In this document: in pieces, positions 3,241 through 23,410 of the stretch
How the letters are laid out: every line of letters begins with the position of its first letter
How positions within the stretch are numbered: the stretch's first letter is position 1
NCBI GenBank assembly: GCA_012519165.1
Contig: JAAYQT010000171.1
Location: 1-33,442, forward strand
Direction: 5' to 3'
Length of the DNA stretch: 33,442 nt
Source of the DNA: Synergistaceae bacterium
Lineage (GTDB): Bacteria > Synergistota > Synergistia > Synergistales > Aminobacteriaceae
Notes under the pieces: generated by a model
Seen by the model: only the letters and a program-made list of their open reading frames with translations
What the model was told of the DNA's origin: nothing
Database searches by the model: none
Made by a program: the position numbers and the translations under genes

Positions 3241-4428
3241 ATGAAGCTTCAAATAAACAGAACGGAATTTATGAAGTACTGGCAGATCGCCGAAAGATGC
3301 ATCAGCTCTAAAAGCTCCATAACCGCCCTTACCGGAGTTCTTGTAAAAGCTGAAAGCGAAGGGGGCGAAAACAAAGTCCGCCTGGAGGCCACCGATCTGA
3401 AAACATCGGTAAAATGTATATCCGCAGGCGCTCTTGCAGAAGAAGAGGGAGAGGCGGTTCTTCCCGTTAAAACCGTAGGCGAGCTTATTAAAAAAGCGCC
3501 GTCAAACATTTTCACCCTATCGGTAAAGGAAGGCAAAGGCCTTATTATCTCCGGGAGAAACCGGTACAGGTTTACCACCTACCCCGCAAAGGAGTTTCCC
3601 ACCCTCCCGATGTCGGAAAACGCCTCCTTCTTCTGTTCCACCAGCGTATCGGAGCTGCTTAAGGCCGTTACCGAGGGGACGGTTGCAAGCACGGCGGGCG
3701 AAGAGTTTCCCAAGTACCTGGGCGCCTGTTTCTTTCAGCTTGCCGGAGGAGAACTCAGAATTGTATCCACCGACGGGCTGAGGCTTTCCCTGTCAAGATT
3801 TTTACCGGCGGAAACAGGCGAAGACAGGGAATTTCTTCTGCCCGTCACGGGCATAAGGGAGCTTCAGCGGCTTCTTTCATCCCTGCCCGACGATACGCCG
3901 GTCAGAATTGCCGCCGAGTCAACCCTGGTTTTCTTCCAGATGGGAAGTATTGAATTTTCAGTAAGAAGAGTAGAGGCTCAATTCCCCGCCTACGAAAAGT
4001 TTCTTGAAGGCAACAAAACCACCTCCCTGGAGGCGGACAGGACCGAACTTAACGCCGCCCTGGAGAGAATAGAAATTATTGTCCGTGACTTTAACAAAGC
4101 GGTAGTAATGGACCTCTCCCCCGGCGGGGACCTATCCCTGTCGGGTAGGGCGCCGGAAACGGGGGAGGCGGACGAGGTCATGGGCGCCGTCATAGACGGA
4201 GAGCCCCTGAAGACCGCCTTCAGAACAAGCTTTCTTATTGACGGCCTGAAATCCCTGCACAGCGACAGGGCTCTGCTTAACTTCAACGGCGCCGGCGCCC
4301 ACATGATAATGCAGCGGCCGGGCGACGATAATTTTATATACCTGGTAATGCCCATGAAGCTGTCCGAGCCGGAAAGCTCCTTCAGTGAAGACGGCGGCGG
4401 GGAGGAGGATTTTTCTCCTGAAGAATAG
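3241..4428 (+). CDS. dnaN: DNA polymerase III beta sliding clamp
   Basis: MKLQINRTEFMKYWQIAERCISSKSSITALTGVLV...; position after dnaA; SD ggggagg before ATG 3241; C-terminal NFIYLVMPMKL. Confidence 0.95.
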   Translation: MKLQINRTEFMKYWQIAERCISSKSSITALTGVLVKAESEGGENKVRLEATDLKTSVKCISAGALAEEEGEAVLPVKTVGELIKKAPSNIFTLSVKEGKGLIISGRNRYRFTTYPAKEFPTLPMSENASFFCSTSVSELLKAVTEGTVASTAGEEFPKYLGACFFQLAGGELRIVSTDGLRLSLSRFLPAETGEDREFLLPVTGIRELQRLLSSLPDDTPVRIAAESTLVFFQMGSIEFSVRRVEAQFPAYEKFLEGNKTTSLEADRTELNAALERIEIIVRDFNKAVVMDLSPGGDLSLSGRAPETGEADEVMGAVIDGEPLKTAFRTSFLIDGLKSLHSDRALLNFNGAGAHMIMQRPGDDNFIYLVMPMKLSEPESSFSEDGGGEEDFSPEE

Positions 4429-4431
4429 CCC

Positions 4432-5487
4432 ATGTGGTGCTCCGAGTACCTAACAAGAAACTTCCGTAACCTGCGGCCCCTTCGCACCCTGTGGGACCCG
4501 GGGCTGAACCTTGTAACGGGAAAAAACGGTTCCGGAAAGACAAACTGCCTCGAAGGCCTCCATCTCGTCACGGGATGGGGGCCCTTCGGGGAGAGAAGGG
4601 ACCTCCCCTCATGGGACGGGGAGGGAAGCAGAGCCTTTATTTCAGGGGCCTTCTGCGGCGAGGAGGACCTTTTTATCTCCATGGCTGCGGGAGGCGCCAC
4701 CCTTATAAAGTGCGACGGCAAACGGGCCTCCTTCACAGAGGTGAGGACGAGGGTTCCCGCCCTGGCTTTTCTCCCCGGCGACATGGCCCTCCTGGACGGC
4801 GCTCCCTCTGTAAGGCGGGCTTTTATGGACAGACTCTGCGCCCTTCTGTTTCCCCTCTACGCCCGGGGCTTGAGCGAATACGGCAGGGCCCTCCGTCATA
4901 AGGCCGCCCTGCTCCGGGAGGGCAAAAGCGCGGCGGCCCTGTCAAAGGTCATGGCCCCCCTGGCGGCTTCCATCTGGACCTCCAGGGAGGAGGCGGTCAG
5001 GCTGCTGTCCCTGGGACTTGCAAATTTTAAGGAGTTAACCGTTCTGCCGTTGCAGCTCTCCCACGAAAGAGGGGGCGCCTTCGGCGACGGGGCGGCTGAG
5101 GAAGACTGGTTCCGCTCCCTGGAGAAGTGGTCGGATAGAGAGAGGGCGGCCTGCGTCTCCCTGGTGGGCCCTCACAGGGACGACCTGAAGGTCCGGGCCG
5201 AAGGACGGCCTCCCGGGGCGGTCTTCAGCAGGGGGCAGCTGAGGAGGGCTTCGGTAGCCCTCATGCTCTCCGCCGCCAAAGCCGCGGAGGCCAGGCTCAG
5301 GCGGAAACCCGTCATACTGATGGACGAAATAGCCTCGGAGCTGGACGAAGAGGGCAGGAGAAGAACTATCGAGGCTCTTGGAGGAAGCGGCTGGCAGGTT
5401 ATCGCCGCCGCAGCGGAGCTCCCGAAACGGGAGTGGCCGGGAAAGATGTGGAAGGCCGACGACGGGGCTATTCTGCCCGTTCTTTGA
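4432..5487 (+). CDS. recF: DNA replication and repair protein RecF
   Basis: YLTRNFRNLRPL...LNLVTGKNGSGKTNCLEGLHL (Walker A), LVGPHRDDL, ILMDEIASELDEEGRR. Confidence 0.93.
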   Translation: MWCSEYLTRNFRNLRPLRTLWDPGLNLVTGKNGSGKTNCLEGLHLVTGWGPFGERRDLPSWDGEGSRAFISGAFCGEEDLFISMAAGGATLIKCDGKRASFTEVRTRVPALAFLPGDMALLDGAPSVRRAFMDRLCALLFPLYARGLSEYGRALRHKAALLREGKSAAALSKVMAPLAASIWTSREEAVRLLSLGLANFKELTVLPLQLSHERGGAFGDGAAEEDWFRSLEKWSDRERAACVSLVGPHRDDLKVRAEGRPPGAVFSRGQLRRASVALMLSAAKAAEARLRRKPVILMDEIASELDEEGRRRTIEALGGSGWQVIAAAAELPKREWPGKMWKADDGAILPVL

Positions 5488-5500
5488 AGGAGCGGAGTTT

Positions 5501-7402
5501 ATGGCCGGAGCGGAAAACAGATACGATGTTTTGGTGGTAGGCGGAGGCCACGCCGGATGCGAGGCCGCCCTTGCCGCCGCAAGAATGGGCGCCCGCACTG
5601 CCCTGCTGAACTTATACCTTGATAATACGGCGCTGATGGCCTGCAACCCATCCATAGGAGGCCCCGCCAAGGGACACCTTGTGCGGGAGGGGAGCGCCCT
5701 GGGGGGCGAGCAGGCGGAGGCGGCGGACAGGTCGGCCGTACTCCTCCGCAGGCTTAACACCTCCAAGGGCCCCGCAGTGCAGGCCCTCCGAGCCCAGTGC
5801 GACCTTAAAGACTACGCGGCCCACTTTACCATGGCGGTGGAGACCCAAAAGAACCTCCACGTCAGGCAGGAACTGGTTACGGATCTATGGGTCGACGGGG
5901 GCAGGGCAAGGGGAGTTAAAACCCGGTACGGCCCCCTATACGAGGCGAAAGCCATAGTCATCGCAGGCGGAACCTACCTGGGGGGGAGGGTTTTTATAGG
6001 GGACGAAAGTTTTTCCTCCGGCCCCCTTGGCCAGGTCCCGTCGAAGGAGCTCCCCCGGTCCCTGCGCGAGGCGGGGATAAAGACGGGCAGAATGAGGACC
6101 GACACCACGCCCAGGCTTCACCTGGACTCCCTGGACCTGTCCTCTCTTACCGCTCAGGGAAGCTCCGGGGAGCCCCTGGCCTTCTCCCTGTGGAACGAGG
6201 GCAAAATTTACGAAGGCTATTTCTGCTACCTGACCAGGTCGGGCCCCGAGACCCACCGTATAGTCAGGGAGAATCTTTGCAGGTCCCCCCTGTACTCCGG
6301 GGCCATGGCCGGGAGGGGTCCCCGGTACTGCCCCTCCATAGAGGATAAAGTAGCCCGGTTTCCCGAGAGGGAGAGCCACCCCGTCTTCCTGGAGCCCGTT
6401 TCGGGGTCCAACCGGGAGGTCTACATGCAGAACTTCTCCACCAGCCTGCCCTTCGATGTGCAGCTTGCCATGGTCCGCTCCCTCCCGGGGTGCGAAAAGG
6501 CCCGCATAGTCCGGCCCGGCTACACCATTGAGTACGACTATATCTTCCCCACCCAGCTCCTGCCCTCCCTTGAGACGAAGGCCGTGGGGGGGCTCTTCTT
6601 CGCCGGGCAGGTGAACGGCACCTCCGGGTACGAGGAGGCCGCCGCCCAGGGCCTGCTGGCCGGCATAAACGCCGCGCTTACGGCAAGGGGAGAGCCCCCC
6701 CTGGTTCTAAGCAGGGGAGAGGCCTACCTGGGCGTCCTGGTGGACGACCTTGTCACCCGGGGGACTGATGAGCCCTACCGGATGCTCACCAGCCGGTGCG
6801 AACACCGCCTTATCCTCCGCCACGACAATGCGGGGAGGAGGCTTTCGCCCATAGGCAGAAAACTGGGCCTCATCGACGACTGCCGGTGGGGCAGGCTGAT
6901 GGCGTCCTGGAAGAGGGTGGACGACGAGATTGAGCGGCTGGAGGGAGCCAGGATCCGTCCTTCCGATGGATTAAATTCGGCCCTTGCAGAGGCCGGATCG
7001 CCGCCCCTGTCGGAGACCGTAAGCGCGGCGGACCTGCTGAGGCGCCCAGAGGTGACCTACGGCCTGGTGGAAAAATTCTCCCCCTCTCCGGCGGCCCCCG
7101 TCGGTGAGGAAATCCTCGCCCTAGAGGTGGAGATAAAGTACGAAGGGTACATTGAGCGCCAGAGGAGACAGGTGGCCAGGCTGGCCAAAATGGAGGGGGT
7201 AAGGCTCCCGCCGGACCTGGACTACTCGGGGATCCCCGGCCTTCTGTCGGAGAGCAGGCAGAAGCTTGAGGCCCTCCGCCCCGTTAACCTGGGCCAGGCG
7301 GGCCGCATCTCCGGGGTGACCCCGGCGGATATTCACCTTCTGTCGGTATGGCTGAACGCCCTTCAGAGGAGGGACGGCCGTGAGGAACTACAGGAAGACT
7401 AG
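5501..7402 (+). CDS. mnmG: tRNA uridine-5-carboxymethylaminomethyl(34) synthesis enzyme MnmG (GidA)
   Basis: YDVLVVGGGHAGCEAALAAARMG, NPSIGGPAKGHLVREGSALGG, LNTSKGPAVQALRAQCD, AGQVNGTSGYEEAAAQGL; ATG 5501 start. Confidence 0.96.
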   Translation: MAGAENRYDVLVVGGGHAGCEAALAAARMGARTALLNLYLDNTALMACNPSIGGPAKGHLVREGSALGGEQAEAADRSAVLLRRLNTSKGPAVQALRAQCDLKDYAAHFTMAVETQKNLHVRQELVTDLWVDGGRARGVKTRYGPLYEAKAIVIAGGTYLGGRVFIGDESFSSGPLGQVPSKELPRSLREAGIKTGRMRTDTTPRLHLDSLDLSSLTAQGSSGEPLAFSLWNEGKIYEGYFCYLTRSGPETHRIVRENLCRSPLYSGAMAGRGPRYCPSIEDKVARFPERESHPVFLEPVSGSNREVYMQNFSTSLPFDVQLAMVRSLPGCEKARIVRPGYTIEYDYIFPTQLLPSLETKAVGGLFFAGQVNGTSGYEEAAAQGLLAGINAALTARGEPPLVLSRGEAYLGVLVDDLVTRGTDEPYRMLTSRCEHRLILRHDNAGRRLSPIGRKLGLIDDCRWGRLMASWKRVDDEIERLEGARIRPSDGLNSALAEAGSPPLSETVSAADLLRRPEVTYGLVEKFSPSPAAPVGEEILALEVEIKYEGYIERQRRQVARLAKMEGVRLPPDLDYSGIPGLLSESRQKLEALRPVNLGQAGRISGVTPADIHLLSVWLNALQRRDGREELQED

Positions 7403-7862
7403 GAGCGGACCCGAGGCGGCGGCAGCCCTTTTGGCCTCGGTAATGCCTCCGGGGGCGGAGGAAAAACTGGCCCTGCCCGAGCTTAGGCGGAAGTGGGAGG
7501 AGGTGGCCGGACCCCTCCTGGCAAAAAAAAGCTACGTAGAGGACATTGAAAAGGGGGAGCTCTTCATTAGGGCCGACAGCCCGTCGTCGGCCAAGTCCCT
7601 GTCCATGAGGGGGGCCTCGCTGGCCAGGGAGGCGGCCCGGGTAGGAGGGGTAAGGGTAACTTCCGTGAGGGTGGCGGTAGGCAAAACCGCCCCCCCGCAC
7701 CGAAAGGGCCCCGGGAAAGCTTCTTCCCCCGTAAGAGTAAGGAAGGAGGACGTGGACGCCGCCCTGGAGGAGGTAAAGGACAAGTTCTCCCCGGAGCGGC
7801 AGGATGCGGCCAGGAGGCTGGCCTCCCTTATGGCCCTATACAGGACCCGGTTCAGGGACTAG
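7380..7862 (+). CDS. DUF721 / DciA-like protein
   Basis: LPELRRKWEEVAGPLLAKKSYVEDIEKGELFIRADSPSSAKSLSMRGASLAREAARVGGVRVTSVRVAVG fits the DUF721 pattern; GTG start; last gene of the dnaA operon. Confidence 0.65.
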   Translation: MRNYRKTRSGPEAAAALLASVMPPGAEEKLALPELRRKWEEVAGPLLAKKSYVEDIEKGELFIRADSPSSAKSLSMRGASLAREAARVGGVRVTSVRVAVGKTAPPHRKGPGKASSPVRVRKEDVDAALEEVKDKFSPERQDAARRLASLMALYRTRFRD

Positions 7863-10800
7863 GACTCCAGCTCCTTCCTCATGGCCTCCTCCACCAGGGA
7901 ATAGTCATACAGGAGCCTGACGAAGAGCTCCGGAACGTCGGCCAACCGCCCGCTCTCTGCGGCAATCTGGACTGCCCTGGCAATGGAGGCCAGCTCGCGG
8001 GCGCAGCCGTTGGAGGCAGCGCCTTTTATAGTGTGGGCCGCCTTTGCGCAAGCAGGGCCGTCGCCGTCCTCCACTGCCCTGCGGAGGTCCTCCAGGTCCT
8101 CGGGCATAGTCTCCAGGAAAATTTCAAGCAGCATGAGGCCCTCCTCCCTGTCCCCCATAAGCTTGGAGAAAAAGGCCTCCCGGTCGAAGACGGAACTGCC
8201 GGACGAAAGCCTCTCCGGCAGGGACGGCGGCCCCGCCTCGGGCCGCATGGGTCGTTCCGGAGGGTAAACCCACCGGCCCACAAGCTCCAGCAGTTCTCCG
8301 GAGGAGAAGGGCTTGGGGAGGTAGTCGTTCATCCCCCGCCGGACGCACTCGTCGGCGAAGCCCTTCATAGCGTGGGCGGTGAGGGCGGCAATGGGCACGT
8401 TTCTGTCCAGTACCGGCGAAGACGGGTCCCTGATTGCGGCGGTGGCTTCGTAGCCGTCCATGCCAGGCATCTGGATGTCCATTAGCACAAGGGAGTAGCG
8501 GTGTTTCTTCAAAAGCTCCAGGGCCTCCTCGCCCCCTTCCGCCATGTGGGGAGTGTAGCCGTTCTTCTCAAGCATCATCCTTACAAGCTCCCGGTTTACC
8601 CTGTTGTCGTCTACAACCAGAATGAGAGGCCTCTCGCCGGGTTTTCCGTTTAAAGCCTCCCGACCCGGCGCCGGCCTTGGGGTCTCCTGTCGCCCTTCGG
8701 AAAGGCTTGCGACTTCAAGGTCAAGGGTAAGGCTGAAGCAGGCCCCCTCGCCCGGGTGGCTCTCCACGGCCAAAGTTCCCCCCATGAGGTCCGCCAGTTT
8801 TTTGGAGATGGAGAGGCCCAGTCCGGTCCCGCCGTATTTTCTGTTTAAAAAGGACTCCCCCTGTTTGAAGGGAGTAAAGAGCTGCTCCATTAACTTCCCA
8901 TCGATTCCCGTGCCCGTGTCGGAAACTGAAAAATTCACTCTGACTCTGTTTCCGTCCCTCTCCATAAGCTTTACGGTAAGGAATACGGCGCCCTTTTCGG
9001 TGAATTTAATTGCGTTGCTTAAAAAGTTGGTTACCACCTGTCTTATCCGCACCGGATCCCCAACAAGGGCGGGGGGCAGGTTCGGGTCGGCGTCGACGGA
9101 AAGGGAGAGGTTTTTTTCCCTGGCCCGGGCGTAGAAGGGGTTTAAACTGTCGTAAAGGAGTTTTTCGAGGGGGAAGGGTATTATTTCAAGGTGGAAGCGC
9201 CCCGACTCCATCTTTGAGAAATCCAGCAGGTCGTTCATCACCCCCAGAAGGCTCTCGGCGCTGTCGTGGATCATGGAGGCCAGTTTCTTTGGGTGCTCGC
9301 CAATGTCGGTGTCCAGAAGAAGCTCCGCCATGCCCATAACGCCGTTCATAGGGGTGCGGATCTCATGGCTGATATGGGCCAGAAACTCCGACTTGGCGGC
9401 GCTGGCCCGCTCCGCCTCGTCCCGGGCGGCTTTTATTTCTAGCTCCGCTTTTTTTCTCTCCGTGATATCCTCCCCGACGGACTGAATAAACTGAAGCCTG
9501 CCTTCGGAGTCGAAAAATCCCCTGTTAATCCATTTTTGCCATGCCTTGGCGCCGTTTGGACCGTAAAGCCATAGTTCATGGTCGAAGGCCGGGTTATCCG
9601 GGGTAATGGACATAAAACCCTTTTCGACGTTTTTAATCTGGTCACCGGGAAGGAGATTCCTGAAGGAGAGGCCCAGCATTTCATTTTGATCTTTTCCAAA
9701 CCATTGACTGAAGGAGTTATTGACATAAAGCATTGTCCCGTCAGGAAGGCAGGTTGTAAGTAAAATGGGCATATCCTCCGCAAGGGAGCGGTATCTTTTT
9801 TCGCTCTCCGCCAGGGCGTCGGAAGCCTTCTTTATGGAGGTAACGTCGTAGCCGCAGGCCACAAGGCCCGTAATTTCGCCGCCGTCGCCGAAAATAGGGG
9901 TTTTTATCGTTCTGAACCAGTAGTCTTTCCTGCCCGGCAGACCCCGATTCTCTACAACGGAGGGCTTGCCGGTCTGTATCAAATTAAGATCTTCCTGAAA
10001 AGCATCAGGCCCTATGGGTTCTCCCATTACATCCTTTGCAGTCTTGCCAAGAATCTCTTCAGTCGTAAAGCCAAAGCCCTCGCAGAAGGCCCTGTTGGCA
10101 AAGGTAAACCTCCCCTGGTCGTCCTTCATGTTAATGTGGACGTCGATAGCGTCCAAAATTTGCCTGCGGATTGCCAGCTCCCGCTCTATCTTTTCCTCCA
10201 GGGCTTTGCGCACGGTAATATCGTCGATAAAGCCGTCGATGAAAAGGGGCTCGCCGGAGGCAGACGGTACAACTCTATAGCGCAGGTGAACGTGGAAGGG
10301 AGTTCCGTCCCTCCTTAAAAAAACGTCCTCCCTGCCGAACCAGACCCCCGGGTTTGAAGCAATGTGCTCTATAACCGCAGGTCTGGCTTCGGGCCTCAGG
10401 TAGATTGAGGCGCCGTAAGACTTTCCGTAGTAATTTATTAGCTCCCCGGGGGACGAAAAGCCGAACATCCTGGCGTGGGCAAAATTTGATATCAGGATTT
10501 CCCCGTCAAGAGTTACCCGGTAAATCCCCACGGGGGCGCTCTCCATAATGGCCTTGTACTGGGCCTCCCGCTCCTCCTGCTCCCTCTCCTTAAGTTTTTC
10601 CTTTGTGATCTCCCGGCGGGACTCGAACACGGCTACGACCTCGCCCCGGTCGTCCTTCACGGGCATGGCCCGGGACAGGAAAATTTTGCCGTCAGAGGAC
10701 CAGGTGGTCTTCTCGCTTATCTCGCCCGTTTCGAAGGTTTCAATTACGGGGCAGTCGTCGCAGGGCGCGGGGGAATTCTGGTGGATGGAGTGGCATGTCC

Positions 10801-18629: not shown

Positions 18630-19799
18630 ATGCTGTTAATTAAAAATGCAGACCTCTACGACCCCGAACCAAAGGGGTTGTGCGATATTCTGATAATAGG
18701 CGGGCAAGTCGCCGCCGTAACGAGCGCGGGCAAGACCGATTTCAACGGCCTCTCCATTGCCGGGGAGCTTAAGACGGCCGACGTCGGGGGAAGTCTTACC
18801 ATGCCCGGCATAATCGACCGGCACGTCCACTTTAACGGCGCGGGAGGAGAGGGAGGGCCCGTAAACAGAACGCCCCCCCTTCAGCTGTCGTCCTTCATTA
18901 AAGCCGGCGTCACCTCCGCCGTGGGAATGCTGGGCACCGACGGCACGTGCCGGGCCCTGGAGGAACTTTTAATGAAGGCTAAAGCCCTGGAGGCGGAGGG
19001 GCTCTCCACATGGATCCTCACCGGGAGCTACGGCCTGCCTTCGCCCACCCTCACCGGAAATATACGCAGAGATCTCTGCCTTATCGATAAGGTCATAGGC
19101 CTTAAGCTGGCCGTCTCGGACCACCGGTGCGCCCACCCTTCAATAGAGGAGTTGAGGCGGGCTGTCTCCGACGTCCGGGTTGGAGGTATCCTCTCCGGCA
19201 AGGCGGGCTTCATGTGCGTCCACATGGGGGACGAGCCTACGGGCCTTGCCCCCCTGCTGGAGGCCATTGCGGGTACCGACGTACCCATAACACAGTTCGC
19301 CCCCACCCATATTTCCCGGTGCGAGGCCCTGGTGAAGGAGTCCGTCTCCTTCGGAACCAGGGGAGGGTATCTGGATATAACCGCCGCGCCCGGGAAGAAT
19401 CCGGTCTTCGGCTTGCCCACTGCCCCTGTGGTGGCGGGGCTGCTTGCGGCGGGGGTACCGGCGGCCAACATAACCTTAAGCTCCGACGGCAACGGGTCCA
19501 TGCCCTCCTTCAATGAGAAGGGGGAGATGGTAGGGCTGAAAGTTGGCCCCCTGGACTCGGTGATTGAATCTGTGGCGGAGATGCTTGAGGGCGGCGAACT
19601 ACCTAAAGAGACGGTGATCTCCATGGTAACTGCTAACCCTGCCGAACAGATGAAACTTCCCCGCAAGGGCAGGGTGCGCCCTGGCTTTGACGGCGACGTG
19701 CTCGTTCTGGACGACGGTTTTAAACCCCGGTTTGTGGCGGCAAAGGGGCGGGTTATGATGGAGGACGGGGAGACAGTGGTTAAGGGGACCTTTGAGTAG
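18630..19799 (+). CDS. iadA: Isoaspartyl dipeptidase (beta-aspartyl peptidase)
   Basis: MPGIIDRHVHFNGAGGEGG, GVTSAVGMLGTDG, ILTGSYGLPSPTLTG, SDHRCAHPS, HMGDEPTGLAPL, LSSDGNGSMPSF. Confidence 0.9.
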   Translation: MLLIKNADLYDPEPKGLCDILIIGGQVAAVTSAGKTDFNGLSIAGELKTADVGGSLTMPGIIDRHVHFNGAGGEGGPVNRTPPLQLSSFIKAGVTSAVGMLGTDGTCRALEELLMKAKALEAEGLSTWILTGSYGLPSPTLTGNIRRDLCLIDKVIGLKLAVSDHRCAHPSIEELRRAVSDVRVGGILSGKAGFMCVHMGDEPTGLAPLLEAIAGTDVPITQFAPTHISRCEALVKESVSFGTRGGYLDITAAPGKNPVFGLPTAPVVAGLLAAGVPAANITLSSDGNGSMPSFNEKGEMVGLKVGPLDSVIESVAEMLEGGELPKETVISMVTANPAEQMKLPRKGRVRPGFDGDVLVLDDGFKPRFVAAKGRVMMEDGETVVKGTFE

Positions 19800-19870
19800 G
19801 GCCGTAACGTTAACTCCCATAAAGAACATAAAGAAAAGCGGCCCCTCATAACAGCGGGGGCCGCTTTTCT
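19731..19870 (+). repeat. Diverged direct repeat, copy 1: iadA 3' end plus terminator
   Basis: TTTGTGGCGGCAAAGGGGCGGGTT... matches copy 2 at 22116; first 46 nt identical at 40 positions. Confidence 0.85.
19832..19870. terminator. Terminator hairpin after iadA
   Basis: AGAAAAGCGGCCCC...GGGGCCGCTTTTCT, 14-bp stem. Confidence 0.88.
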
Positions 19871-19879
19871 ATCCACTTT

Positions 19880-21091
19880 CTATCGGACGGCGTTAAGGCT
19901 ACTCTCGCCAAAAAGCGGGATCTGAATTGTATCCATATAGCCATATTCATCCTTTACGTTATCAATATTACGAAAATACTCCCTGATCTTTTCCGCCAAG
20001 GCCATGGCAAGAAGGGGAGGAACGGCATTTCCTATCTGTTGATATTGGGAGAGATTTTTTTCCCAGGACATGGTTGTTCTTTTACCCATAAAGACGTAGG
20101 TATCGGGGAACGATTGAAGACGGGCGCCCTCTCTTGCCGTGAAATTTCGGTGTAAGCGGGGATGTATGAAGTTGCTCTGGAAGGACGCCGCCACTGTGGG
20201 GGATGGCAGGTTGCCGAAGACGCGCATGTTGTTCTGGCTGAAGACCTTGCCCGATTTGACAGACGGATTGCCCCTCTTAAGGGCGGAGTGCTCATAGGGA
20301 ACGTCAGCAACGCTCTGTCCGCTTTGAATGACCTTAAATCTCTCCACAAGCCTTTTAGTATGACGCATTGCCACATGATTGAATACCCCGTCGGAGTTTT
20401 GACGCGCCCATATCTGGTAGTCGTTTCCCGGCGGGACAGGATAGGCCTGAAATTCTTTCCCTTCGCCGGCCTCCAGGGGGGGCAGATCGGAAATGGCCAT
20501 GTCTACAGTTACATACTCATCTTCCGCAAGCTTGCCTTCCGGAAAAATTTTCATCCTGGAGAAGGGAAACTGCCTCTGCACCCCTATTATGAAAATCCTC
20601 TCTCTTAACTGGGGAACGCCAAACAGGGCTGCGTTAAGTAGACAATGATCAGTCTTATATCCTGAAGCGGCGAACTCGTTTTTGATAATCTCAATTACTG
20701 ACTCTCCGCCGGCCGTTTTCATGGATAAGAGGCCGGGGACATTTTCCATAATGAAAAATTTAGGTTTAAAGTGGCTTACGCACCGGATAAAATCCATAAA
20801 AAGACTGTTACGGGGGTCGTTGGGGTCGCGATTTCCGCTCAATGAAAAGCCCTGGCAGGGGGGGCCCCCTATAATGCCGTCAAGATTTTGTATTCGCCCG
20901 TCGGGTAAAAATTTGTCCCAGTTTTGAATTTGCCGTATATCTCCCTGAACCACCGTTACTTCAGGGTGATTGCGTTTGTAGGTATCAGCAGCCCATTGGT
21001 CTATCTCGTTGGCGGCTACGGTTGTAAAACCCGCCATCTTAAAACCCAGGCTCATTCCCCCGCATCCGGCAAAAAGATCGATGATTCTCAT
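19880..21091 (-). CDS. DNA (cytosine-5-)-methyltransferase of a type II restriction-modification system
   Basis: MRIIDLFAGCGGMSLGFKMAGF, GGPPCQGFSLSGNRDPNDPRNSL, FIMENVPGLLSM, REGARLQSFPDTY, QQIGNAVPPLLA; start 21091. Confidence 0.93.
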   Translation of the reverse strand: MRIIDLFAGCGGMSLGFKMAGFTTVAANEIDQWAADTYKRNHPEVTVVQGDIRQIQNWDKFLPDGRIQNLDGIIGGPPCQGFSLSGNRDPNDPRNSLFMDFIRCVSHFKPKFFIMENVPGLLSMKTAGGESVIEIIKNEFAASGYKTDHCLLNAALFGVPQLRERIFIIGVQRQFPFSRMKIFPEGKLAEDEYVTVDMAISDLPPLEAGEGKEFQAYPVPPGNDYQIWARQNSDGVFNHVAMRHTKRLVERFKVIQSGQSVADVPYEHSALKRGNPSVKSGKVFSQNNMRVFGNLPSPTVAASFQSNFIHPRLHRNFTAREGARLQSFPDTYVFMGKRTTMSWEKNLSQYQQIGNAVPPLLAMALAEKIREYFRNIDNVKDEYGYMDTIQIPLFGESSLNAVR

Positions 21092-21111
21092 AAATACAGC
21101 CCGCCTTCCGC

Positions 21112-21951
21112 CTAGATCATAAGCCCGCTCTTTATTCTGGACTCCATGTCGCTCCACGGCGCCTCAAGATGTTCCTGCGTATCTTTGAAAAGGCTCCAGG
21201 CAACATCCTTGTCCACAGGATTTAGCTCTCTTTTCCCTTCGCTGCTCTTTTGTTTTCTTAAGACGTATATTTGGTCAATTTTAGAGTGTTTGGGGTCTAC
21301 GTCGTGGGTAACATCGTAAAATTCCGAAACAACTATAAAACGGCTATAGGGGTTGCCCTGTTTTATTCGTTCAGCCGTTGCCACGGCTCCCTCGTACATG
21401 GTTTTATCAATATAGGTTTTGCATTCAATGGATAAAACCGGAACAAAGATTAACTCGCCGGCGGGTTTGGGTCTCTCTTTTTCAGGAGACTCTCCGGGAG
21501 TCGCGCTAATATGTACTGCCTTTGATATGGCAAAATCCTGGTTTTTAGTATAAACGTTCATGCCGCAATCCACCTGTAGCTTTTTTAGATCGGCCGGGGC
21601 GAAGAAAAGATTGGTGTAGGCTCTCGTCGGACCCAGCTTCATCATGGCTTCTATATGGGGAATGCGCCGGAACAGGTAGTACATGAACTCCTCAAGCACC
21701 GTTGAATGGAGTTTGGATTGGGACGTAAATGCTTTTTTGTAGTCTTCTCCATCAATGAATTTTTTGTAGGCCTCGAAGTGATCAACCAACCTGTCATTGC
21801 TTTCGCGATTGGAACGTTCTATGGATAGAGATTGCTTCCTCCATTTTTCATACTCTGGCTCCAGTCCTTTAATCAGCGTCTCTTGAATTTTGGTCTGTTT
21901 CTTTTGTCTTTTTTTGGCTTCTATGTTATTGTCGTGAATAAAGCAGTTCAT
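21112..21951 (-). CDS. Predicted type II restriction endonuclease, possibly Bpu10I-like
   Basis: PD-(D/E)xK-like arrangement QDFAI...VPVLSIECKTY; paired 20 bp upstream of the C5-methyltransferase; ATG 21951 with SD aggagg. Family name is tentative. Confidence 0.65.
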   Translation of the reverse strand: MNCFIHDNNIEAKKRQKKQTKIQETLIKGLEPEYEKWRKQSLSIERSNRESNDRLVDHFEAYKKFIDGEDYKKAFTSQSKLHSTVLEEFMYYLFRRIPHIEAMMKLGPTRAYTNLFFAPADLKKLQVDCGMNVYTKNQDFAISKAVHISATPGESPEKERPKPAGELIFVPVLSIECKTYIDKTMYEGAVATAERIKQGNPYSRFIVVSEFYDVTHDVDPKHSKIDQIYVLRKQKSSEGKRELNPVDKDVAWSLFKDTQEHLEAPWSDMESRIKSGLMI

Positions 21952-22043
21952 GCGTCCTCCTGTATGAAAACGGCCCTGATTCGCCGCAATTACACCGGAT
22001 TTACCGATCCTTTCCCAGTCTGCTTTTAAACAACCTAAACTAA

Positions 22044-22058
22044 TATTACACTGTAATA
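22044..22058. promoter_or_regulatory. Candidate operator in the R-M promoter region
   Basis: TATTACA-C-TGTAATA, 7-bp perfect inverted repeat, overlapping a possible -10 on the minus strand. Confidence 0.45.
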
Positions 22059-22088
22059 AGGGAATTTGCACGATCCTGCTTAAATCCT

Positions 22089-22175
22089 GAAACCGCGCTG
22101 GGGGAAACAGAAAACTTCGTGGCGGCAAAGAGGCGGGTTGTGATAGAAGACGGGGAGGCAGAAGAGGACCTTTGA
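22089..22175 (+). pseudogene. Remnant of an iadA 3' end (copy 2 of the direct repeat)
   Basis: Reads ...ENFVAAKRRVVIEDGEAEEDL*, versus IadA tail RFVAAKGRVMMEDGETVVKGTFE*; no start or upstream gene body. Confidence 0.75.
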
Positions 22176-22201
22176 GCAGGTCTGTAAAGTCTACCCCATA
22201 A

Positions 22202-22241
22202 AAAAACGCGGTCCCCCATAATAGCGGGGGGCCGCGTTTTT
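22202..22241. terminator. Terminator hairpin; second copy of the iadA terminator and bidirectional for the aminotransferase
   Basis: AAAAACGCGGTCCCCC-(ATAATAGC)-GGGGGGCCGCGTTTTT. Confidence 0.88.
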
Positions 22242-22258
22242 AACGTGACGTCCGGGCC

Positions 22259-23410
22259 CTATAGCCCCTTCGCAAACTCCTCGACCCTGTCCATGGCCTT
22301 TACCAGGTCGTCCATGGACCTGGTGCAGGCAAGCCTTACGTAGCCCTCGCCGCACTCTCCGAAGGCGCCGCCTGGCAGGACGGCTACCTTGGCCTCCCTG
22401 ATGAGCCTCCAGGCGAAGTCCTCGCTGGAGAGGCCCGTGCCGGTGACGTCGGGGAAGAGGTAGAAGGCCCCCTCGGGGGGAGCGCACTTTATGCCCTTCA
22501 TGGCGTTCAGCCGGTCCGAACAGTAGGAGAGCCGCTCGAAGAAGATTTTGGCCCGCTCCGCAGTCTTGTGGTCGTGGTTGTCCAGGGCGTACTTGGCCGC
22601 CATCTGGGCGGAGACGTTAATTCCGTAGGTCTGGTTTGCCCCCAGTAGGGTCATGACCCTGATGAGGGGCGCGGGGCCTATGGCGTAGCCCAGTCGCCAG
22701 CCCGTCATGCAGTGGCTCTTGGAGAGGCCGCCCATGGTGAGGGTCCGCTCCTTCATGCCGGGGATGGAGGCGAAGGGTATGTGGTTCCCCTTGTAGACCA
22801 GGGCGTCATAGATTTCGTCGGAGAGCGCTATAAGGTCGTGCTTTTCCACAACTTTGGCTATACCCTCCATCCTGGCCCTGTCCATTACCCTCCCTGTGGG
22901 GTTGCTGGGGGAGCAGATCATGAGGACCCTGGATTTTGGGGTAATAACCCGCTCAAGAGACTCAGCCGACGGCATGAAGCCTTCTTCGGCGGTTGTGGCC
23001 AGATGGACAACCTTGCCCTGGTTCTGGTAGATCTGGTCAAAGTAGGGGCCGAAGCAGGGCTCGGCGGTGATTACCTCGTCGCCGGGGTTCAGCAGCGCCT
23101 GGAGGGCCAAATAGGCGGACTGGATGCCCCCCGCCATAATCTGAACCTCTTCGGGGGTAGATTTCAGCCCGTAGCGGCGGTCCCAGTAGTCGCACACCGA
23201 CTGGCGCACGGCGGGCAGCCCCTGGACGGGGCCGTAGTGGGTGAAGCCGGCCCTGGCCGCTCTGGCGGCCTCGTCTATAATGTCGGGCTCTGTGTCAAAG
23301 TCCGGCTCGCCGATGCCCAGGCTGATGACCTCGGGGTCGGCTTCTGCGGCCTGAAAGATCTTTAGCATCCCCGAGGGTTTTACATCTTTGAATCTCTCTG
23401 CAAACTTCAT
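22259..23410 (-). CDS. Pyridoxal-phosphate-dependent aminotransferase class I (aspartate/aromatic-type)
   Basis: VISLGIGEPDFDTEPDIIDEA, HYGPVQGLPAVRQSV, CSPSNPTGRVM, LSDEIYDALVY, GGLSKSHCMTGWRLGY. Confidence 0.92.
   Translation of the reverse strand: MKFAERFKDVKPSGMLKIFQAAEADPEVISLGIGEPDFDTEPDIIDEAARAARAGFTHYGPVQGLPAVRQSVCDYWDRRYGLKSTPEEVQIMAGGIQSAYLALQALLNPGDEVITAEPCFGPYFDQIYQNQGKVVHLATTAEEGFMPSAESLERVITPKSRVLMICSPSNPTGRVMDRARMEGIAKVVEKHDLIALSDEIYDALVYKGNHIPFASIPGMKERTLTMGGLSKSHCMTGWRLGYAIGPAPLIRVMTLLGANQTYGINVSAQMAAKYALDNHDHKTAERAKIFFERLSYCSDRLNAMKGIKCAPPEGAFYLFPDVTGTGLSSEDFAWRLIREAKVAVLPGGAFGECGEGYVRLACTRSMDDLVKAMDRVEEFAKGL

What the first reader, a model, noticed from the sequence alone, without database searches (positions are those of the whole stretch)
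19731..22241. R-M module flanked by diverged copies of the iadA 3' end plus terminator
The C5-methyltransferase/endonuclease pair lies between two direct repeats. Copy 1 (19731-19870) is the true end of iadA and its terminator. Copy 2 (22116-22241) contains a diverged iadA tail (FVAAKRRVVIEDGEAEEDL* versus FVAAKGRVMMEDGETVVKGTFE*) and a similar terminator. The first 46 nt match at 40 positions and all six differences are transitions; copy 2 then lacks 6 nt. No transposase, integrase or tRNA is visible. The arrangement resembles insertion with long target duplication, a mode proposed for R-M mobility by Kobayashi's group. The divergence suggests an old event, or that one copy came in with the island from a relative.
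Basis: partly seen in the sequence, partly recalled or inferred. Interest (0 to 1): 0.78.

Follow-up and report, generated by a model that had tools for sequence, protein, structure and literature searches.

The report
Restriction-modification pair inserted with target duplication
A DNA-defence gene pair inserted between two housekeeping genes and duplicated the 130-140 bases where it landed, leaving both neighbours intact, each with its own stop signal for transcription; this is a known but poorly understood way for such gene pairs to move.

Summary
Copy 1 (19731-19871, iadA 3' end plus bidirectional terminator) and copy 2 (22116-22242) are direct repeats: 40/46 identical, then 75% over 142 columns. 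They are the only two copies in the genome and flank a 2,244-nt, low-GC insert carrying only a C5-methyltransferase and a BbvCI/Bpu10I-family endonuclease.

Four congeneric genomes have the same iadA-aminotransferase convergent junction with one iadA end, no second copy and no R-M pair. Copy 2 is closer to copy 1 (54/61) than to any relative's iadA (at most 43/61), carries a 5-nt frameshift (not 6 nt), and has lost the stop codon. Both terminators survive, with two compensatory pair changes and one G-U change.

Best explanation: one R-M operon inserted with a long target duplication (about 0.13-0.14 kb), a mode described by Kobayashi's group.

A survey of 60 other C5-methyltransferase loci in the order found an even cleaner second case: a HaeII-type R-M flanked by 337-nt copies of a lysR end, with a single-copy empty site in a sister species. 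A third, EcoRII/Vsr-type locus is ambiguous. Such repeats are not significantly more frequent than at control loci.

New member of a known kind.

The parts
18630..19799 (+). iadA, beta-aspartyl (isoaspartyl) dipeptidase; target gene, intact
   Evidence: TIGR01975 at 413 bits, cut-off 331; ortholog in all four congeners
19731..19871 (+). copy 1 of the duplicated target: last 69 nt of iadA including its stop, plus the terminator
19830..19871 (.). bidirectional terminator hairpin of copy 1; presumed to end iadA (+) and the methyltransferase mRNA (-)
   Evidence: arms at 19830-19845 and 19857-19872; folds at -28.1 (+) and -29.1 (-) kcal/mol with T tracts on both strands
19872..22115 (.). unique insert of 2,244 nt, GC 0.471 (window median 0.576), absent from four congeners
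19880..21091 (-). C5-cytosine DNA methyltransferase, 403 aa; stop codon 8 nt from the repeat
   Evidence: PF00145 E 1.9e-79; TIGR00675
21112..21951 (-). type II restriction endonuclease, 279 aa, BbvCI/Bpu10I family, single subunit, PD-(D/E)XK motif IECK present
   Evidence: PF09549 E 2.4e-31; BbvCI subunit 2 (PDB 6eg7) E 1.5e-34
21952..22115 (-). 164-nt region upstream of the endonuclease, presumed R-M promoter (palindrome TATTACAGTGTAATA inside)
   Evidence: sequence; no sigma-70-like match found there
22116..22242 (+). copy 2 of the target: decayed iadA tail (5-nt frameshift deletion, stop TAG to CAG) plus terminator
22202..22241 (.). bidirectional terminator hairpin of copy 2; presumed to end the aminotransferase mRNA (-) before it enters the R-M genes
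   Evidence: -31.0 (+) and -30.0 (-) kcal/mol; two compensatory pair changes vs copy 1
22259..23410 (-). class I/II aminotransferase, right-hand neighbour of the target site
   Evidence: PF00155 E 3.6e-63; conserved next to iadA in congeners

Best explanation
A bare type II R-M operon (promoter, BbvCI-family endonuclease, C5-methyltransferase) inserted at the convergent iadA/aminotransferase junction, and the insertion duplicated about 130-140 bp of target: the iadA 3' end plus the one bidirectional terminator that had served both genes. Shown: the repeat, its uniqueness, and the empty site in four congeners. Inferred: that the duplication arose at insertion, either by fill-in of a widely staggered break or by joining of the R-M fragment to two sister chromosomes at offset positions. 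The duplication leaves iadA, the aminotransferase and the R-M operon each with a terminator. Copy 2's coding part then decayed while both hairpins were kept.
For: Repeat unique in the genome and far above chance. Empty site with one iadA end in four congeners, synteny nhaC-iadA-aminotransferase-panB where visible; no relative of the endonuclease in those genomes. Insert is the GC minimum of the window and holds only the R-M pair. Copy 2 is closest to copy 1 (54/61 vs at most 43/61 to relatives), with frameshift, lost stop and change of a near-invariant glycine. Both terminators keep pairing through A-T to C-G and G-C to A-T double changes and one C-G to T-G. The same arrangement with a clean empty site exists in the order: G120 HaeII R-M between 337-nt lysR-end copies, single copy in sister genome G136, flanks colinear with no net loss at the site. 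A review describes R-M insertion with target duplications of the order of 100 bp (PMC3874152).
Against: The congeners are about 25% diverged in iadA DNA, so they show the ancestral order, not the immediate pre-insertion site. The two copies have diverged a good deal (11% coding, more in the terminator), so original identity is inferred. Homologous integration of a circle bearing a close relative's iadA tail would leave the same anatomy. At the order level, flanking direct repeats are not clearly more common at methyltransferase loci than at random loci (3 of 61 vs 5 of 180).
Confidence: 0.68

Rival explanations
1. Campbell-type homologous integration: an R-M-bearing circle or fragment that carried an iadA tail plus terminator from a close relative crossed over with the resident iadA end, leaving one resident and one foreign copy. 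Such a circle could come from excision between the repeats of an earlier insertion at the same locus.
For: Leaves the same anatomy; copies are 11% apart in the coding part. In the G120 and G136 loci the copies are about as far apart (5%) as the sister species.
Against: Copy 2 is closer to copy 1 than to any of 19 relatives' iadA tails. No relative of the endonuclease next to iadA was found. In G120 the two copies share 16 sites against the sister species, vs 10 and 7 discordant, which fits duplication within the lineage.
Confidence: 0.18
2. A tandem duplication of the iadA end and terminator came first, and the R-M operon later inserted between the copies.
For: Anatomically equivalent; not excluded by divergent congeners.
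Against: No congener has the tandem copy, and it needs two independent events with insertion exactly at the duplication joint (8 nt from the methyltransferase stop).
Confidence: 0.09
3. Artefact or coincidence: chance similarity of two terminators, a dispersed repeat, or a chimeric contig.
For: The genome is fragmented (410 contigs); reads could not be examined. The genus does carry dispersed palindromic repeats.
Against: The repeat is coding plus terminator, found only at these two places, far above chance; flanks are colinear with congeners.
Confidence: 0.03

Closest known systems
Insertion with long target duplication of R-M genes (Nobusato et al. 2000; Furuta et al. 2010; cited in PMC3874152, PMC1643837, PMC3031569)
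   Same: R-M genes alone, no transposase, flanked by direct repeats of target of the order of 100 bp, with an empty site in relatives.
   Different: Here in another lineage, with older, diverged copies, and the duplicated unit includes a bidirectional terminator that both copies have kept.
BbvCI / Bpu10I / Bsu36I / BlpI family (PF09549) of type II endonucleases
   Same: Endonuclease matches BbvCI subunit 2 over its whole length; the residues aligned with R2 Gln83 and Met186 are kept, as in relatives that read CTNAG cores.
   Different: One endonuclease gene, so presumably a homodimer with a palindromic site, unlike the two-subunit BbvCI; gene order is endonuclease then methyltransferase, while the relatives in L028 and L036 have methyltransferase first.
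R-M movement as composite transposon or IS co-integrate (PMC3031569)
   Same: R-M unit between direct repeats, which would allow amplification or excision by recombination.
   Different: The repeats are host target sequence, not IS elements.

Membership tests
R-M insertion with long target duplication | R-M unit flanked by direct repeats of target sequence, about 100 bp or longer | tested here: met
   141/127-nt copies of iadA end plus terminator
R-M insertion with long target duplication | Related genome with a single copy of the repeat and no R-M genes | tested here: met
   four congeners; but only at about 75% DNA identity
R-M insertion with long target duplication | No transposase, integrase or IS at the ends | tested here: met
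   insert contains only the two R-M ORFs; repeat occurs nowhere else in the genome
R-M insertion with long target duplication | Copies identical at insertion, i.e. duplication made by the insertion event | tested here: inconclusive
   copies are each other's closest relatives, but 11% or more apart; no same-species empty strain held
BbvCI/Bpu10I endonuclease family (PF09549) | Profile match above cut-off and catalytic motif | tested here: met
   109.5 bits, cut-off 25; IECK aligned with BbvCI R2
BbvCI/Bpu10I endonuclease family (PF09549) | Cleavage at a CTNAG-type site | not testable with these tools
   predicted from the aligned Gln and Met residues only
C5-cytosine DNA methyltransferase | PF00145/TIGR00675 above cut-off with PCQ and ENV motifs | tested here: met
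   motifs visible

The most novel reading that the evidence does not exclude
R-M operons may preferentially enter the hairpin terminator between convergent genes and duplicate it, so that insertion harms neither neighbour and insulates the operon. In both cases with an empty site (window and G120) the R-M lies at a convergent junction, and one edge of the duplicated segment falls at the terminator hairpin.
Probability: 0.12. Interest if true: 0.65.

Novelty: new member of a known kind. Interest (0 to 1): 0.42.

Why it matters
How bare R-M operons move without a transposase is unresolved, and the examples named in the papers read here come mainly from Helicobacter comparisons. This gives one old case with kept terminators and one recent, nearly nucleotide-exact case (G120/G136) in another bacterial order. 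It also gives a testable idea: insertions that duplicate a shared terminator at a convergent junction are the harmless ones and so the ones that persist.

Tried and rejected
Transposon-like ends: no shared motif or inverted repeat seen at the insert ends of the window and G120. Cutting by the element's own enzyme: the only CTNAG site between 18500 and 23500 is at 22961, outside the insert and repeats; no HaeII site within 5000-9300 of the G120 locus, and one at 3875 in G136, 436 nt outside the duplicated stretch. R-M family carrying its own flanking repeats: none at 14 distant relatives beyond AT-rich or repeat-rich noise, nor at G059 in the same family. Plasmid or phage carriage of the endonuclease: no match. 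Enrichment of flanking repeats at methyltransferase loci: 3 of 61 vs 5 of 180 for random centres, not significant and with slightly different filters. The third locus (G136 EcoRII/Vsr) is not counted as clean: the flank before the left copy is not colinear with G120. An AT-rich 52-nt repeat in L026 was judged low-complexity chance.

Full report
Observation. The two stretches are a genuine direct repeat. Ungapped, 19731-19776 matches 22116-22161 at 40 of 46 positions, with six transitions. The whole repeat is 19731-19871 vs 22116-22242, 74.6% over 142 columns, E 3e-19. None of about 400 random 46-mers of the window found more than 34/46 elsewhere. The only other direct repeats in the window at that threshold join two paralogous ABC ATPase genes. 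In the whole 2.19-Mb assembly the repeat occurs at these two places only. One correction: copy 2 lacks 5 nt, not 6, which shifts the frame, and the iadA stop TAG reads CAG.

What lies between. The 2,244-nt insert (19872-22115) is the GC minimum of the window, 0.471 against a median of 0.576. It holds two genes on the minus strand: an endonuclease of the Bpu10I/BbvCI family (PF09549, E 2.4e-31; BbvCI subunit 2, E 1.5e-34) and a C5-methyltransferase (PF00145, E 1.9e-79). The methyltransferase stop lies 8 nt from copy 1. The endonuclease start is 164 nt from copy 2. Relatives of the endonuclease are scattered over WOR-3, Chloroflexota, archaea and Bacteroidota at 29-50% identity, and in only one other of 83 genomes of the family, so the pair is most likely a horizontal acquisition. 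The residues aligned with BbvCI R2 Gln83 and Met186 are kept (my count on the alignment). According to PMC6326814 relatives with these residues read a T:A pair in each half-site and leave the central base free, so a CCTNAGG- or GCTNAGC-like site is a prediction, not a result.

Empty site. In four congeneric genomes (G001-G004) iadA and the aminotransferase are convergent neighbours, with 227, 100, 319 and 77 nt between them, and the wider order nhaC-iadA-aminotransferase-panB is kept where visible. None of the four has the endonuclease or a second iadA end. G002 and G004 have one iadA end and one strong hairpin. In G001 and G003 the gap is longer because of a dispersed palindromic element of the genus.

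History of the copies. Over 61 aligned coding positions copy 2 matches copy 1 at 54 and no relative's iadA at more than 43. At the seven differing positions most of the closer relatives agree with copy 1 at four and with copy 2 at two. Copy 2 also changes a glycine that nearly all relatives keep, is frameshifted and has lost its stop. It is a decayed relic that shares a recent ancestor with copy 1. The hairpins behave differently: both fold strongly on both strands, and aligned on their CGG core they differ by two double, pairing-preserving changes (A-T to C-G, G-C to A-T) and one C-G to T-G change, with no pair broken. Both hairpins therefore look selected since the duplication. This is a small sample (two sequences).

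How it most likely works. Before the insertion one bidirectional terminator served two convergent genes. After it, transcription from the aminotransferase (minus strand) meets the copy 2 hairpin before the R-M genes; the R-M mRNA (minus) ends at copy 1; iadA (plus) ends at copy 1 too. The duplication therefore keeps iadA whole and gives each unit a terminator. Gene directions and hairpins are shown; termination itself is inferred. How the duplication is made is unknown. A widely staggered break with fill-in, or joining of the two fragment ends to sister chromosomes at offset positions, would both give it; an own-enzyme cut is not supported.

Is it isolated? PF00145 was searched in 151 genomes of the order and 60 further loci were fetched, some with short flanks at contig ends. 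Strong flanking direct repeats were found at the window, at G120 (L077) and at G136 (L093), and weaker multiple ones at L086. At G120 a HaeII endonuclease (PF09554, E 3e-138) and its methyltransferase lie between a full lysR gene and a 337-nt copy of its 3' end, 94.4% identical. In sister genome G136 the 337-nt segment is single copy and the flanks run through without loss (1571 nt at 94.5% and 2096 nt at 93.9%, overlapping by exactly 337 nt). The two G120 copies share 16 sites against G136, vs 10 and 7 discordant. This is a cleaner case of the same phenomenon. At G136 an EcoRII-C/Vsr/C5-methyltransferase cluster lies between a partial (about 724 nt) and a full copy of an ABC ATPase gene, but the left flank is not colinear with G120, so it stays ambiguous. 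A control with random centres gives repeats of at least 100 nt in 5 of 180 tests, so frequency alone proves nothing; the empty sites do.

Compared with what is known. Kobayashi's group described R-M insertion with long and variable target duplications, of the order of 100 bp, first from Helicobacter pylori (PMC3874152; PMC1643837; PMC3031569). The 2010 systematic study (PMC2853133) is not held; from memory it reports the mode for several R-M types. The locus meets the anatomical tests of that mode. The unproved test is that the copies were made by the insertion itself. Novelty is thus a new member of a known kind, with two additions: retained, co-varying terminators, and an independent clean example in the same order.

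Limits. No same-species strain was available, the metagenome collection could not be scanned, and reads could not be inspected.

Noticed in passing
L077 (G120:C3:55592-70485), 5505-5841 and 8127-8463: HaeII-type R-M operon between 337-nt copies of a lysR 3' end, with a single-copy empty site in sister genome G136 (L168 3103-3439): a clean insertion with long target duplication.
   Followed up: yes
L093 (G136:C1:467441-482367), 4202-4925 and 8896-9617: EcoRII-C endonuclease, Vsr and MerR-fused C5-methyltransferase between a partial and a full ABC-ATPase gene copy (95% identical); left flank lies in a variable region.
   Followed up: partly
iadA/aminotransferase junctions of L002 and L004 (G001, G003): A dispersed palindromic intergenic repeat (dozens of copies in G001, G002, G003; none found in G000 or G004) has inserted at the same convergent junction.
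   Followed up: partly
L077 9004-9069: A 66-nt dispersed repeat that occurs many times in the genus of G120.
   Followed up: no
window 22044-22058: Palindrome TATTACAGTGTAATA (minus strand) upstream of the endonuclease, a possible operator or promoter element of the R-M operon.
   Followed up: no
L037 (G059:C96), 5372-7469: Distant relative of this R-M pair (methyltransferase first, endonuclease second) directly downstream of a biotin carrier protein gene of a decarboxylase operon; no flanking repeat.
   Followed up: partly
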